Below are positions 39,169-44,372 of a DNA stretch of 64,000 nucleotides, in pieces. The stretch comes from Acidobacteriota bacterium (lineage in GTDB: Bacteria; Acidobacteriota; Thermoanaerobaculia; Gp7-AA8). The notes below the pieces were generated by a model. It had not been told where the DNA came from and did not search any database. It saw nothing but the letters and a program-made list of their open reading frames with translations. The DNA lies in NCBI GenBank assembly GCA_003223645.1, contig QHVT01000005.1:124001-188000 (forward strand), read 5' to 3'. A program made the position numbers and the translations under genes. How positions within the stretch are numbered: the first letter of the stretch is position 1; every line of letters starts with the position of its first letter.

Positions 39169-40836
39169 TCAATACCCTCCCGCCGCACCGCCGCGACGCG
39201 GGTCGGAGACGGCGATCATTTTCCCTTTGTCGAAGAGAATCGCCTGCACGTCGCCGATCGCGTCGCGCGCGGCGACGCCGTGTCCCATCGCGTTGAGCGC
39301 CTCGATCGTTTTCTTCGGCGCGGCGGTTTCGTAGGTGATGTCGTCCGGCGATCCCTGGTGATGGAAGCGCGGCGCGGCGACGGCGTCGGGCAGCGACTTG
39401 CCGTAGACCACGAGGTTGAGAAACACCTGCAGGATCGTCGTCGGAATCGTCGGGCCACCGCGCGTGCCGATGGCGAGGTATGGCGTGCCGTCGCGCAGGA
39501 CGATCGTCGGCGAGAGCGATGACGCGCGACGCTTCGCCGGCTCGATCGAATTCGCGTTGCTCTGCTGCAATCCGTCGCGATTCGCGGTGCCGCTGGCGAT
39601 CGTGAAGTCGTCCATCGCGTTGTTCAGAAAAAATCCGAGGCCGGGGACGAGATAGCCGCTGCCGAAATTCTCGCCGAGACTCGTCGTTACGGCGGCGATG
39701 TTGCCGCTGCTGTCGGCGATCGTGAAGTGCGTCGTGTGCTCGCCTTCGGCAGTCGCGACGGCGGGCTCGGTCAGCACCGCAGTCGCCGTAGCGCGCGCAG
39801 CATCGATCGTTTTCCGCCACGCCTCGCCGCGTTTGCGCGAGAGCAGATCGCGGTACGGAATGCGCGCGCTGAACGGATCGGCGAGGTATTTGTTGCGATC
39901 GACGTAGGCGCGCTGTTCGGCTTCGACGATGAGGTGCAGCGCGCGCACGGACTGAAAACCGGCGGCGCGCAGATCGTCGCCGGCGAGGATGTTGAGCGCC
40001 TCGCCGATCACGAGACCGCCGCCGGACGGCGGAGCAACGGTATAGATGTCGTATACACCGTAGTGCAGCTTCAGCGGCGCGCGCCAGACCGGTTTGTACT
40101 CGCGGAGGTCGCGGAAGCCGATGTAGCCGCCGCCGAAGCGCACGCCTTCGACGAGCTTCTTCGCGATGCCGCCTTCGTAAAACTCTTTCGCGCCGCTGTC
40201 GGCGATGCGCTGCAACGCGGCCGCGAGCTCGGGTTGCTTGAGCGTCGATCCTGCCGCGAGTCCGTCAATCTTCACCTTTGCAGTCGCCGCATCGGTGACC
40301 AGCTCCGTGTCGGCGACGAATCCGTAATGCGCGAGCGACGCCGCCGGCGCGACGAGCTCGCGCCACGGACGCGAGCCGAACTTGCGATGCATCTCTTCGA
40401 GCCCGGCCACCGTTCCCGGCACCCCGCCCGCGGACGCTCCGCTTCTCGCGCCGTTCGCATTCTTCGCAAACATGTCGCGCGTCGCCGCCAGCGGCGCAAC
40501 CTCGGTGAAGTCAAGCGTCCACACCGCGTTCGTCGATTTGTCGTAGTACGTGAGAAATCCGCCGCCGCCGAGATTGCCGGCCTGCGGGTGCACGACCGCG
40601 AGCGCGAACGCGACGGCGACCGCGGCATCGATCGCGTTGCCGCCCTTTTGGAGAACGGCGAGGCCGACCTTGGTTGCGATGGGATGTGCGGTGGCGAGCG
40701 CGGCGTGCGTGGCGGTGGCGTCGGAGGCGTATGAAGGCCAACACAGCAGAACGCAGAACGCAGAACGCAGAACGCAGAGTTTGAAAGCGTGAGTCTTTCT
40801 ACGTTCTACGTTCTGCGTTCTGCGTTCTGCGTTCAC
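39169..40836 (-). CDS. Gamma-glutamyltransferase with array-encoded signal peptide
   Basis: 555 residues, Ntn-hydrolase that cleaves itself before a Thr and transfers or hydrolyses gamma-glutamyl groups (e.g. glutathione) in the periplasm. Features: 'GGNAIDAAVAVAFALAVVHP', 'GNLGGGGFLTYYD', 'APPSGGGLVIGEALNIL', autocleavage/nucleophile Thr in 'GEHTTHFTIADSSGN', 'GFFLNNAMDDF' and 'SSLSPTIVLRDG'. The start is a GTG at 40836 overlapping the coaX stop (GTGA). The charged n-region ('NAERRTQNVERRK') is read from one arm of a GCAGAAC array and the hydrophobic core ('LCVLRSAFCVLLCW') from the other. Fusion of the open frame with sequence further upstream is not real. Confidence 0.9.
   Translation of the reverse strand: MNAERRTQNVERRKTHAFKLCVLRSAFCVLLCWPSYASDATATHAALATAHPIATKVGLAVLQKGGNAIDAAVAVAFALAVVHPQAGNLGGGGFLTYYDKSTNAVWTLDFTEVAPLAATRDMFAKNANGARSGASAGGVPGTVAGLEEMHRKFGSRPWRELVAPAASLAHYGFVADTELVTDAATAKVKIDGLAAGSTLKQPELAAALQRIADSGAKEFYEGGIAKKLVEGVRFGGGYIGFRDLREYKPVWRAPLKLHYGVYDIYTVAPPSGGGLVIGEALNILAGDDLRAAGFQSVRALHLIVEAEQRAYVDRNKYLADPFSARIPYRDLLSRKRGEAWRKTIDAARATATAVLTEPAVATAEGEHTTHFTIADSSGNIAAVTTSLGENFGSGYLVPGLGFFLNNAMDDFTIASGTANRDGLQQSNANSIEPAKRRASSLSPTIVLRDGTPYLAIGTRGGPTIPTTILQVFLNLVVYGKSLPDAVAAPRFHHQGSPDDITYETAAPKKTIEALNAMGHGVAARDAIGDVQAILFDKGKMIAVSDPRRGGAAGGY
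40744..40836. repeat. Inverted heptamer array (GCAGAAC / GTTCTGC) encoding a signal peptide
   Basis: 'gcagaacgcagaacgcagaa' words (40747-40778), a loop, then 'acgttctgcgttctgcgttc' words to the coaX stop. It is the whole signal sequence of the gamma-glutamyltransferase on the minus strand. Confidence 0.9.
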
Positions 40837-41618
40837 CGTCGCGCCCGTCGACTCACTCGATTCCTGTCGTAAATGATCTTCAGTCCCTTCAGCGTCAGCT
40901 CCGCGTCGATCTCGTCGATGTACTCGCTCTCTTCGGCGAACAGCGACGCGAGTCCTCCGGTCGCGACGATGCGTTTGAGCTCGGGCAATTCGCGTTTGAT
41001 GCGCGAGAGGATGCCGTCGACGAGACCTAGGTAGCCGAAGTAGAGGCCGGACTGCATGTTCGAAACGGTGTTCGTGCCGATGGCGCGCTCGGGACGCTTC
41101 ACGTCGATGCGCGGCAGTCGCGCCGCGCGCGCGAAGAGCGCTTCCGCGGAGACGTTGAGGCCGGGTGCAATCACGCCGCCGATGAACTCCGCGTTCGCGG
41201 TCACGACGTCGAACGTCGTCGCGGTGCCGAAGTCGACGATCACGGTCGGCCCGCCGTACTTGTCGTGCGCGGCCGCGCAATTCACGATGCGGTCGGCGCC
41301 GACTTCGAACGGATTGTCGACGTGAATCGCGATCCCCGTCTTCACGCCCGGCTCGACGAACAGCGGCTCGATGCCGAAGTACTTCTGCACCATGAACGCC
41401 ATCGCGCCGTTGAGCGGCGGCACGACCGACGCAACGATCGCGCCTTCGAGCTCCGCGTGCAGCGCGTCGCCTACGAGCTGCCGTGCGAGGATTCCGTACT
41501 CATCGGCCGTGCGCTCGCGCGCCGTCGCGAGCCGCCACGAGCTCACCAGCTCGTCGCCGCGATAGACGCCGAGGACGAGATTCGTGTTGCCGAGATCGAC
41601 GACGAGGAGATTGGACAT
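40833..41618 (-). CDS. coaX: Type III pantothenate kinase
   Basis: 261 residues, first enzyme of coenzyme A synthesis (pantothenate to 4'-phosphopantothenate), ASKHA fold. Motifs: 'LLVVDLGNTNLVLGVY' (phosphate 1), 'PFEVGADRIVNCAAAHDKYG', 'VIVDFGTATTFDVV' (phosphate 2), 'GGVIAPGLNVSAEAL' and 'IVATGGLASLFAEE' (adenosine). In many bacteria coaX follows birA directly; here an IS110-family element lies between them. The last codons abut a heptamer array and the stop overlaps the start of the gamma-glutamyltransferase. Confidence 0.93.
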   Translation of the reverse strand: MSNLLVVDLGNTNLVLGVYRGDELVSSWRLATARERTADEYGILARQLVGDALHAELEGAIVASVVPPLNGAMAFMVQKYFGIEPLFVEPGVKTGIAIHVDNPFEVGADRIVNCAAAHDKYGGPTVIVDFGTATTFDVVTANAEFIGGVIAPGLNVSAEALFARAARLPRIDVKRPERAIGTNTVSNMQSGLYFGYLGLVDGILSRIKRELPELKRIVATGGLASLFAEESEYIDEIDAELTLKGLKIIYDRNRVSRRARR

Positions 41619-41642
41619 CGGACTTCAGTGTATCGCGCACCC

Positions 41643-41729
41643 GTCATCCTGAGCCGCGAAGACGGCGAAGGATCGCAAGCTGCGGAACGTATAAGTCGGT
41701 TGAGATCCTTCGGCGTCTTCGCGCCTCAG
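41643..41729. repeat. Palindrome R1 copy, apparently interrupted
   Basis: 'gtcatcctgagccgcgaaga' at the left and 'gatccttcggcgtcttcgcg' then 'cctcag' at the right. Full copies end in 'gatgac'; that end is missing here but 'ctcaggatgac' is found at 43519-43529, across the IS110 gene. Confidence 0.78.
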
Positions 41730-41904
41730 AGGCTGCTACGAAAACTTAAGCTGGAAAGAGGGTCGGTGGGCAGAGATACCCTGAGCTGACAGATCAGTCA
41801 GCGAGAATCCAAGCGAGGTGCGCTACATCAGGGTCCCGTTCACCTTGAGCTCAAGAGAGCAGGATAGGCGATCCTGCTGAGGGGGCTGATGAGCGGCACT
41901 TAAA

Positions 41905-43155
41905 TCAGGTGGACTTCTTGGTCAAGGTGACCATGAAGCCGAGCGAGGAGAGCTTTTTGAGATGTCGCTGCACGGCACGCTCCTTGTTTCTGGCATCGTA
42001 GAAGTTGGGACCGAGGTCGGAATAGGGCCGATCGGTTGAGAGAACGTGATAGACGATCACGAGAATCTGGCGGGCAAGTGCGACGAGGGCTTTGTTGCGA
42101 CCGATGCGACTCTGTAGTCGCATGAAACGAACACGGAGGAAGCTGTCCTTGGTCCGTGATGCAGCCCATGCGATCTGGACGCAGATCCGTTTGAGATGGT
42201 GATTGCCTTTTCGAACGGAGATCCTGCGACGCTTGTCTGAGCTGATGGCATTGCCAGGAGCCAGCCCCGCCATAGCGGTGAGGTGACGATCGCTGCGATA
42301 GACGCTCATGTCGGCGCCGGTTTCGGCGAGCAGCGTAACCGCGCCGATGGCGTTGATCCCGGGAATGGCGTCGAGTCTAGCCAGAGCGGCAGCATACGGA
42401 GTGGCAAGGGAGGAAATCCTCAACTCGGTCTGGGCCACTTGGCTATCGATCATGTCGTAGGTATGCAGGTGCATCTTGAGCAACTCACGTTGTTGAGTGG
42501 ATAGCGGGTGACGGAGTGCTTGTTCCAAAGCTGGGATCTTGTTGCGAAGCTTCCCTTTTGCTTGGCCTGCAAGGAGGCTAATGTCTGGCGTCTGCTCGCA
42601 GAGGCCGTCGAGAATGATGCGGCCCGTCTTCCCAAACGAATCGCTGGCGACCGAAGAGAGCTTGACCCCGGCCATCTCGATCAGCTTGATGGTGCGATTT
42701 TTTGCAGCCGTGCGAATCGCGACCAACTTGGCTCGATAGCGTGTAACAGCTCGCAACTCACGAATCGGCTTCGGCGGAACGAAGCTCACCCTGAGCAATC
42801 CATGAGCGTGGAGTTCCGCCAGCCAGGCTGCATCGCTCACGTCGGTCTTCCGGCCGGGGACCTTCTTCACATGACTGGCGTTGACGACGGCCGGTTGGGT
42901 AACGCCTTCAAGCAACTCATACAAATGCATCCAGTAAACGCCTGTCGACTCCATCACCACATCCGTGACCTGCTGCTCGACAATCCATTGACGCAGTCGC
43001 TCCAAATCCTCGGGCATGGTTCCGAACTGCTGGGTCACTCCGACAGGCTCCTGATCCGAGCCGAGATGCACGCGTAGATAGGCTGTGTTCTGCTTCTTGT
43101 GCAAGTCCAGACCAAGACACCGCTTCCTGATGACGCGCATGGCGCCTCCTTTCAT
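41905..43155 (-). CDS. IS110-family transposase (DEDD recombinase)
   Basis: 416 residues. N-terminal RuvC-like DEDD domain ('RCLGLDLHKKQNTAYLRVHL', 'VVMESTGVYWMHLYELL', 'VPGRKTDVSDAAWLAELHAH'), coiled-coil middle, and C-terminal Transposase_20 domain ('LDAIPGINAIGAVTLLAETG', 'AGLAPGNAISSDKRR') holding the catalytic Ser. These are the two domains of RNA-guided IS110 recombinases. Appears intact; codon use is visibly less GC-rich than its neighbours, fitting recent arrival. Start taken at 43155; an internal ATG 15 bases later ('MRVIRKRCLG') follows a 'ggaggcgcc' site and may be the real one. Confidence 0.93.
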   Translation of the reverse strand: MKGGAMRVIRKRCLGLDLHKKQNTAYLRVHLGSDQEPVGVTQQFGTMPEDLERLRQWIVEQQVTDVVMESTGVYWMHLYELLEGVTQPAVVNASHVKKVPGRKTDVSDAAWLAELHAHGLLRVSFVPPKPIRELRAVTRYRAKLVAIRTAAKNRTIKLIEMAGVKLSSVASDSFGKTGRIILDGLCEQTPDISLLAGQAKGKLRNKIPALEQALRHPLSTQQRELLKMHLHTYDMIDSQVAQTELRISSLATPYAAALARLDAIPGINAIGAVTLLAETGADMSVYRSDRHLTAMAGLAPGNAISSDKRRRISVRKGNHHLKRICVQIAWAASRTKDSFLRVRFMRLQSRIGRNKALVALARQILVIVYHVLSTDRPYSDLGPNFYDARNKERAVQRHLKKLSSLGFMVTLTKKST

Positions 43156-43410
43156 GCGCTGGAAGTGGCCGTGTGCACCGAGTAGCCAAAAACGAAGCTG
43201 CTACGCGTGCTCTATTGATGCTGGCGACAGAAGGTGATACCAAGATCGGCGCGGGTCAATCTGTGAAGCGCGATCAAGTCGGCAAACTTAGAACGACCTT
43301 TGGCACGACCACCTACAGCTAGTCAAAGGAGTAAGCAGATTGGCCCGTCAACGCAACGTTTTCATCGACGGCGACGCGGCGCGCCTCATTGGATCTGTGA
43401 AAGAATCGGT

Positions 43411-43503
43411 GTCATCCTGAGCCGCAAAGACGGCGAAGGATCCCCCGCCGACGGAGCGTCAAGCGTTCTAACGCCGGGGATCCCTCGCTGCGCTCGGGAT
43501 GAC
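43411..43503. repeat. Palindrome R1 copy within extended 'ctgtgaaa' arms
   Basis: 'gtcatcctgagccgcaaaga' and 'cgctgcgctcgggatgac', extended outward by 'ctgtgaaa' (43395) and 'ttttcacag' (43507-43515). Between the IS110 transposase and birA. Confidence 0.75.
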
Positions 43504-43519
43504 ACATTTTCACAGCCTC

Positions 43520-44296
43520 TCAGGATGACGGTGCGAGCACCAAGTCCCCCGCACTGATCGCGATCGTCTCGCCGGCGCTCTGTAGCAGCGCGCGGCCGTG
43601 CTCGTCGATGCCGTTCCAGGTGCCGGTGATGGTGCGGTCGCCGAGGACGCATTGAATGCGGTCGCCGGGCTGATGGATCGAGAGCGAGCGCCACTCGGCG
43701 AGTACTTCGTCGTGATCGAGCGGACGCGCGAGGCGCGCGTCGATGTGCTCGATGAACGCGAGCGTCGCGTTCTCGATACCGTCGAAGTTGCGAGTCGTCA
43801 GTTCACGGATCGCGGTCGCGTTCGGTCGATGTTCGTCATTCACCGGCTCGACGTTGATGCCGGTGCCGATCAGCAGGTACGCGCGATTTTCCTGCAAGCG
43901 CGCTTCGATCAGGATGCCGGCGATCTTTTTGTGATCGACGAGGATGTCGTTCGGCCACTTGATGCGCGCCTCGATCGCGAACGTGTCGCGAAGATACGAC
44001 GCGAGAGTGTTCGCCATCGCCAGCGGCACGAGCGGCAGCTCCTGCGCGCTGCGCGTGAGCAGCGTCGTCGCGTAAATCCCTTTGCCCGCCGGCGACGACC
44101 AGCGGCGGTCGTTGCGTCCGCGTCCCGCGAACTGCTCGCCGGCGATGATCATCGCCTGCGGCAGCGACAGCTCGTTCTCGATGCATTCGTTCACCACGCG
44201 CCGCGCGATGAGGTTCGTCGACGCCACGCGCGGGATGATCGCGAGCGACTCGAGCGCGCGCAGGCGCGGAACGATTTCTCGTGTGTCGAGCTGCAT
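43520..44296 (-). CDS. birA: Biotin--[acetyl-CoA carboxylase] ligase
   Basis: 258 residues. Activates biotin as biotinyl-AMP and transfers it to the carboxyl carrier protein. Biotin-binding loop 'EQFAGRGRNDRRWSSPAGKG', 'IKWPNDILVDHKKIAGILIE' and 'IGTGINVEP' are canonical; the C-terminal SH3-like domain follows. No N-terminal helix-turn-helix, so a monofunctional (class I) enzyme, not a biotin repressor. ATG at 44296 ('MQLDTREIVPRL') chosen; the upstream frame reads through a repeat array. The final Ser-Ser-stop is made from 'gtcatcctga', the start of an R1-type sequence. Confidence 0.92.
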   Translation of the reverse strand: MQLDTREIVPRLRALESLAIIPRVASTNLIARRVVNECIENELSLPQAMIIAGEQFAGRGRNDRRWSSPAGKGIYATTLLTRSAQELPLVPLAMANTLASYLRDTFAIEARIKWPNDILVDHKKIAGILIEARLQENRAYLLIGTGINVEPVNDEHRPNATAIRELTTRNFDGIENATLAFIEHIDARLARPLDHDEVLAEWRSLSIHQPGDRIQCVLGDRTITGTWNGIDEHGRALLQSAGETIAISAGDLVLAPSS

Positions 44297-44301
44297 AATT
44301 T

Positions 44302-44372
44302 CGGTTACGCGGTTTCGCGGTCTCGCGGCTACGCGGCACTGAGCGACCGCGAAACTGCGCAACCGCGCAACC
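44302..44372. repeat. Inverted array of 'cgcggtttcgcggtctcgc' words
   Basis: Words around 'cgcgg(t)ttcg' followed by complementary 'cgaccgcgaaactgcgcaac' and 'cgcgcaacc'. Between the valS stop and the birA start on the same strand; related to the array at 5991-6059. Confidence 0.7.

What the first reader, a model, noticed from the sequence alone, without database searches (positions are those of the whole stretch)
41643..43529. IS110-type element appears to have inserted into an R1 palindrome, separating birA from coaX
Seen: the left R1 copy ends 'cctcag' at 41729 without its terminal 'gatgac'; 'ctcaggatgac' lies at 43519-43529 at the end of birA. The intervening DNA begins 'aggctg' and ends 'cagcct' and is flanked by 'ctcag'. 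Known: IS110 recombinases are RNA-guided and many members target REP-like palindromes; birA and coaX are often adjacent. A second R1 copy within the right non-coding side complicates the border.
Basis: partly seen in the sequence, partly recalled or inferred. Interest (0 to 1): 0.68.

Follow-up and report, generated by a model that had tools for sequence, protein, structure and literature searches.

The report
IS110 element nested in MITE-like repeat
A self-mobile DNA element of the IS110 family, which appears to find its insertion sites with a guide RNA, has jumped into the end of another small repeat that had itself jumped into a palindrome between two genes, and comparison with its relatives suggests that the parts of its guide RNA are laid out in an order different from that described for the best-studied relatives.

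Summary
The stretch that 'begins aggctg, ends cagcct and is flanked by ctcag' is not the IS110 element. It is a separate palindromic MITE-like repeat (B) with inverted ends, inserted into the R1 palindrome with a CTCAG direct repeat. The IS110 element sits inside B's left end: element 41735-43394, CT core copies at 41733-41734 and 43395-43396. A paralogue in the same genome (L002) has R1+B without IS110, which is the empty site. birA and coaX are adjacent in 11 of 15 relatives in which a birA locus was found. The element encodes a 416-aa DEDD recombinase and, upstream, a conserved bridge RNA. Its left target, right target and left donor guides were located by comparing 55 elements. Two points differ from the IS621 description. 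The right target guide lies 5' of the left one (the order reported for IS1111), although the RNA is upstream (the IS110 place). The two bases after the left target guide copy the element's first two bases: 28 of 35, permutation mean 3.9, maximum 12 in 20,000. This looks like a mirrored 'handshake'. Weak points: in the window copy the right guide pairs at 2 of 4 bases, no right donor guide was found, nothing was tested at the bench.

The parts
40833..41618 (-). coaX (type III pantothenate kinase), downstream neighbour
   Evidence: PF03309 E 3.6e-75
43520..44362 (-). birA (biotin-protein ligase), upstream neighbour; its TGA stop (43520-43522) lies in the CTCAG direct repeat
   Evidence: PF03099 and PF02237
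41643..41729 (.). layer 1: R1 palindrome, left part (from GTCATCCTGAG to CTCAG)
43524..43529 (.). layer 1: tail GATGAC of the same R1 palindrome, split off by layers 2 and 3
41725..41729 (.). CTCAG direct repeat, left copy (belongs to insertion of B)
43519..43523 (.). CTCAG direct repeat, right copy
41730..41734 (.). layer 2: MITE-like palindrome B, outer five bases of its left end
   Evidence: empty-site paralogue L002
43395..43518 (.). layer 2: rest of B, ending TTTTCACAGCCT; the core CT is counted in both pieces
41735..43394 (-). layer 3: IS110-family element between its two core copies (1660 bp)
   Evidence: paralogue empty site and guide matches
41733..41734 (-). core dinucleotide (AG in gene sense), right-end copy
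43395..43396 (-). core dinucleotide (AG in gene sense), left-end copy
41905..43155 (-). DEDD recombinase, 416 aa
43156..43394 (-). left end (upstream non-coding end, 239 nt) that holds the bridge RNA
43170..43315 (-). predicted bridge RNA, approximate limits
   Evidence: alignment of 55 left ends, consensus fold
43287..43290 (-). predicted right target guide TAAG (pairs the target at 2 of 4 positions here)
43261..43267 (-). left target guide TTCAC plus core AG, equal to the target at 43395-43401
43259..43260 (-). two-base tail AT of the left target guide, equal to the element's first two bases (43393-43394)
43198..43205 (-). left donor guide CGTAGC plus core AG, equal to the right end at 41733-41740
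41735..41904 (-). right end (170 nt), well folded, role unknown
   Evidence: fold z-score -2.23

Best explanation
Three nested layers lie between birA and coaX. (1) An R1 palindrome fills the short intergenic space. (2) A MITE-like palindrome B of about 130 bp, with ends AGGCTGTGAAA.../...TTTTCACAGCCT, inserted at CTCAG of R1 and left a 5-bp CTCAG direct repeat. (3) An IS110-family element inserted into B's left terminal repeat, in gene sense at TTTCAC-AG-CCTCTG, adding no target bases beyond the shared AG core. Shown by sequence: the layers, the ends, the empty paralogous site and the guide matches. Inferred: the element excises as a circle, the joined ends express the upstream bridge RNA, the target-binding loop pairs with the site and the donor-binding loop with the element's end, and the DEDD/Ser recombinase exchanges strands at the core. 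In this clade the target-binding loop has the right target guide 5' and the left target guide 3'. The 3' guide runs on for 2 nt that copy the first two bases of the element's left end, so it matches the finished left junction (5 target bases, core, 2 element bases). I read this as the handshake described for IS621, mirrored onto the other guide and strand.
For: Empty site: L002 has R1+B joined without IS110, and the window's flanks joined with one core copy differ from it by one base over CTCAGAGGCTGTGAAA.AATCGG. IS110 body occurs once, R1/B parts at 58 further listed places. B ends: 80 matches vs 2 in the control; 7 of 16 end pairings have a perfect 5-bp CTNAG repeat, 5 have four of five. Catalytic residues D17, E69, D105, D108 in 10 of 10 and Ser/Thr305 in 10 of 10. 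Guide matches of 7 or more: left target guide 36 of 55 own flanks vs 39 of 2918 cross pairs; left donor guide 41 of 55 vs 39 of 2918. Right target guide: one peak in 146 columns, z 7.6, 5' of the left guide; 73 of 104 vs 46.7, sd 3.9, maximum 63 of 3000. Two-base tail: 28 of 35, permutation mean 3.9, maximum 12 of 20,000; z 9.9 in the column scan. Target-loop stem held in 39 of 45 to 46 of 47 sequences with compensating changes.
Against: In the window copy the right target guide pairs at 2 of 4 bases and the left guide mismatches at the sixth target base. 14 of 55 left junctions and 14 of 55 right junctions were not resolved by my rule. No right donor guide found (best z 1.8; best of 40 offset tests z 2.7). 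The tail after the donor guide is weak (7 of 29 vs 3.6, p 0.03). The window RNA alone does not fold better than shuffles (z -0.07), and the antisense consensus fold is only somewhat weaker (-8.85 vs -10.07). 4 of 16 B end pairings lack the direct repeat. Permutations do not fully remove relatedness of the elements.
Confidence: 0.8

Rival explanations
1. One reading: the IS110 element itself spans AGGCT...AGCCT and inserted directly into R1 at CTCAG.
For: CTCAG flanks and inverted ends are really there.
Against: The same AGGCTG...CAGCC(T) unit with CTCAG repeats exists elsewhere in the genome without any IS110 inside; the guide matches put the ends at 41735 and 43394.
Confidence: 0.03
2. The element is inactive, or its match to B's end is an off-target event: guide-directed insertion into B ends is not its habit.
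For: Single copy despite about 80 candidate B ends; right target guide pairs 2 of 4.
Against: Intact 416-aa frame with its catalytic residues; 7-nt left guide match exactly at the junction and 2-nt tail match.
Confidence: 0.25
3. The two-base tail is not a handshake. It is a by-product, for example because the RNA loop is copied from or gene-converted with the left junction, or because the true core is four bases long.
For: No mechanism was tested; 7 of 35 elements do not match at both bases.
Against: In the window the two bases differ from the target's own (AT vs CC), so they are not part of a longer shared core. The peak is at one column pair only.
Confidence: 0.3
4. B is not a MITE but a form of the R1 palindrome family with added flanks, spread by recombination.
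For: B's core contains an R1-like palindrome.
Against: Defined inverted ends and CTNAG direct repeats in 7 of 16 pairings; insertion inside R1 in L002 and here.
Confidence: 0.2

Closest known systems
IS621 bridge RNA system (IS110 group)
   Same: DEDD/Ser recombinase (profile hit to 8wt6, E 3.2e-26); bridge RNA in the left end; left guide pairs the bottom strand and right guide the top strand; dinucleotide core.
   Different: Recombinase 416 aa against a 328-aa chain; target guides in the opposite order; tail follows the left guide and copies the left end; core mostly AG, not CT.
IS1111 group (seekRNA papers: ISEc11, ISPa11, ISKpn4)
   Same: Top-strand guide precedes bottom-strand guide.
   Different: RNA upstream, not downstream; recombinase outside the 330-350 aa range given for IS1111; subterminal inverted repeat in the window short (GAAAAC/GTTTTC) and far from the left end.
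IS110 subgroup of long transposases (395-455 aa) with upstream NCR; ISArsp3 as a named relative
   Same: Length range and NCR position; ISArsp3-family record L124 (38.6% identity) shows the same guide order and tail.
   Different: No guide layout for this subgroup was found in the passages and sections I read.
IS4321/IS5075 in Tn21-family terminal repeats
   Same: An IS110-family element parked in the terminal inverted repeat of another mobile element (reference title seen; details recalled).
   Different: IS1111 group; the host repeat here is a small palindrome inside a palindrome.

Membership tests
IS110 family | PF01548 DEDD domain and PF02371 C-terminal domain | tested here: met
   80.6 and 58.5 bits, cut-offs 29 and 21.3; DEDD and Ser/Thr in 10 of 10
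IS110 family | Conserved SG motif at the nucleophile | tested here: inconclusive
   Ser kept, next residue Ser here and Ala or Gly in relatives
IS110 family | Insertion without duplication beyond a short core | tested here: met
   Comparison with the empty paralogue L002
IS110 family | Circular intermediate with promoter across the joined ends | not testable with these tools
   needs PCR or reads
IS110 group (bridge RNA in the left end) | Longer NCR and RNA upstream of the gene | tested here: met
   left end 239 nt, right end 170 nt; RNA conserved upstream in 55 sequences
IS110 group (IS621-type bridge RNA) | Left target guide 5' of right target guide | tested here: not met
   Right target guide at column 82, left at columns 112-118
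IS110 group (IS621-type bridge RNA) | Left and right donor guides | tested here: inconclusive
   left donor guide met (41 of 55), right donor guide not found
IS1111 group | RNA downstream of the gene | tested here: not met
IS1111 group | Top-strand guide 5' of bottom-strand guide | tested here: met
IS1111 group | Subterminal inverted repeats of 7-17 bp | tested here: inconclusive
   6-bp GAAAAC/GTTTTC in the window; longer ones seen by eye in some relatives, not counted
IS1111 group | Tree position with IS1111 transposases | not tested
   no named reference sequences held
MITE (repeat B) | Short, non-coding, terminal inverted repeats, target duplication, many copies | tested here: met
   80 end matches vs 2; perfect CTNAG repeat in 7 of 16 pairings
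MITE (repeat B) | Autonomous partner with the same ends | tested here: inconclusive
   A 9-copy element with the similar end AGGGTGTGAAGAA, 8 of 9 after CTCAG, sits at contig ends; its 83-aa gene fragment has no Pfam hit

The most novel reading that the evidence does not exclude
A widespread clade of IS110 elements carries a third bridge RNA architecture: encoded upstream as in IS110 but with the guide order of IS1111, and with a mirrored handshake in which the 3'-placed left target guide reads through the core into the first two bases of the element, so that one 9-nt stretch spells out the finished left junction. By symmetry with IS621 the bottom strand would be exchanged first.
Probability: 0.5. 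Interest if true: 0.75.

Novelty: new variant of a known kind. Interest (0 to 1): 0.57.

Why it matters
Bridge RNAs are studied as tools for programmable DNA rearrangement. A natural clade whose target loop is laid out the other way round separates two features, RNA position and guide order, that were reported to go together in the elements tested so far. The donor-reading tail makes the question of which strand is exchanged first testable, and it offers a simple way to call exact ends of such elements from a single copy: look for the 9-nt repeat between the upstream RNA and the left flank.

Tried and rejected
IS110 as the AGGCT...AGCCT unit: rejected by the empty paralogue. Guide RNA in the right end (the IS1111 place): the relatives' right ends share little beyond TTTTC, five bases and the core, although the window's own right end folds well. 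Rfam: three hits, all far below gathering scores, to microRNA families, taken as chance. Close relatives: none above 43% over full length in 60 relatives, 396 phylum genomes, viral contigs or plasmids (best 42%); one 56% fragment of 76 residues in a Bacteroidetes MAG. Right donor guide: not found. Antisense RNA: consensus fold weaker but not decisively so. Tree against IS1111 and IS621: not built, as I held no named reference sequences.

Rows dropped: one search used 55 upstream sequences; records lacking the gene's 5' part or with an identical RNA were left out. For one search, 41 resolved left junctions became 35 and the resolved right junctions (41, three more added by eye for L033, L118 and L126, one too short removed) became 29 after removing repeated guides. 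One search used 26 elements.

Full report
OBSERVATION. coaX (40833-41618, minus) and birA (43520-44362, minus) are identified by Pfam. Between them lie an R1 palindrome missing its tail, an IS110 recombinase gene (41905-43155, minus) and a second palindrome.

NESTING. A search of the window's own 6.38-Mb genome with 41600-43600 found the IS110 body only here, whereas the R1-like parts (about 41640-41735 and 43395-43533) recur at 58 further listed places. At G000:C44:208027-208257 (L002) the two recurring parts are joined without an IS110: R1 ending CTCAG, then AGGCTGTGAAAAAATCGGTGTCATCC ... TTTTTTCACAGGCT, then CTCAGGATGAC. So a second element, B, with inverted ends, had inserted at CTCAG of R1, and the CTCAG repeats are B's. 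Of 16 end pairings (overlapping pairings of one locus included), 7 have perfect 5-bp CTNAG direct repeats, 5 have four of five and 4 have neither. The B-end pattern has 80 matches at up to 3 mismatches, the reversed control 2. The window's flanks joined with one core copy differ from L002 by one base around the junction. The IS110 therefore lies in B's left end: 41735-43394, with core CT (AG in gene sense) at 41733-41734 and 43395-43396. Identical bases next to the core leave a one-base ambiguity, settled here by the guide matches and the common core of the relatives.

birA-coaX. Of 18 family genomes, 16 gave a birA match, one being the window's own. Of the 15 others, coaX lies on the same strand 19 to 487 bp downstream in 11 and was not found within the fetched stretch in 4 (three of one genus, one near a contig end). 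In the only same-genus relative the gap is 106 bp and holds none of the three layers. birA's stop codon (43520-43522) lies in the CTCAG repeat at the R1 end, so neither B nor the IS110 breaks birA.

RECOMBINASE. 416 aa; DEDD residues identical in 10 of 10 aligned members, nucleophile position Ser in 8 and Thr in 2. A 10-sequence profile finds IS621 (3.2e-26) and ISCro4 (1.6e-24) in the PDB. The nearest full-length relatives are 43% identical. In the same genome only two partial, more distant relatives at contig starts were found.

BRIDGE RNA. The upstream 185 nt of the window element and 54 relatives from whole genomes, viral contigs and plasmids align with conserved blocks and two hypervariable stretches. 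Each hypervariable stretch was compared with the element's own flanks, without using the bases after the core. Left target guide: contiguous match of 7 or more (5 plus 2-nt core) in 36 of 55, against 39 of 2918 cross pairs. Left donor guide: 41 of 55 against 39 of 2918. The core is mostly AG, with AA or AT in some elements. In the window: TTCAC-AG at 43261-43267 and 43395-43401; CGTAGC-AG at 43198-43205 and 41733-41740.

ORDER. A scan of 146 alignment columns for complementarity to the first four bases of the right flank gives one peak, z 7.6 at column 82 with its neighbours, just before a conserved UUGG and 5' of the left target guide (columns 112-118); the next unrelated column has z 2.3. 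The anchored test gave 73 of 104 against 46.7 (sd 3.9, maximum 63 of 3000) over 26 elements. The consensus fold of 18 sequences places the two guides on the two sides of an internal loop between stem GGUC/GACC and an inner hairpin; the stem pairs hold in 39 of 45, 41 of 45, 42 of 46 and 46 of 47 sequences with alternative pair types. IS621's target loop is described as stem, left guide (A50-U58), stem loop, right guide (G77-G80) (PMC11208158, passages). The seekRNA paper reports bottom-strand match first for the one IS110-type element it tested and top-strand first for IS1111 elements (PMC11187229, abstract, passages, sections 6, 12, 13). The clade here thus has the IS110 position with the IS1111 order.

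TAIL. The two bases after the left target guide's core equal the first two bases of the element's left end in 33 of 41 resolved elements, 28 of 35 after removing repeated guides; permutation mean 3.9, maximum 12 of 20,000; column scan z 9.9, next unrelated column 2.4. IS621 has two-base handshake guides after its right-hand guides that pair with the incoming partner. I read the tail as the mirror image of that. The corresponding tail after the donor guide is weak (7 of 29 vs 3.6, p 0.03; first base 17 vs 11.6, p 0.0005).

AGAINST. The window copy's right guide pairs 2 of 4, its left guide mismatches at the sixth target base, no right donor guide was found, its single-sequence fold is ordinary, and permutations do not remove all relatedness. 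No experiment was run. Novelty is judged only from paper searches in an open-licence library. Durrant et al. (PMC11208160) was read as passages and section 12; its figures were not visible, and one of its six drawn structures (for example ISAar29, by recall from a relative of the host of ISArsp3) could already show this order.

VERDICT. A real, bridge-RNA type IS110 insertion whose border was misread. As an insertion it is ordinary; the layout of the guide RNA in its clade is the more interesting result.

Noticed in passing
G000 contig ends: C3:161, C5:284, C7:163, C12:63, C15:289, C21:105, C41:599147, C48:27893, C50:25535: A 9-copy insertion sequence with end AGGGTGTGAAGAATTCGCGCGTGC, 8 of 9 after CTCAG, breaks the assembly at contig ends and sits in R1-type palindromes; by recall its 83-aa N-terminus looks IS1182-like, but Pfam gave no hit.
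   Followed up: partly
window 43519-43529: The end of the R1 palindrome (TCATCCTGA on the minus strand) supplies the last codons and the stop of birA.
   Followed up: partly
window 41735-41904: The element's right end is unusually long for its clade (170 nt; 32-207 in relatives, many below 60) and folds better than shuffles (z -2.23); no function was found.
   Followed up: partly
L010 (G000:C36:1-1964): A second IS110, 43% identical to the window's, cut by a contig start, with right end GCAGCAG followed by AATTCAGAAG.
   Followed up: no
L065-L067 (viral contigs), L040-L042: Relatives with core AT or AA instead of AG, changed together in the target and donor guides.
   Followed up: partly
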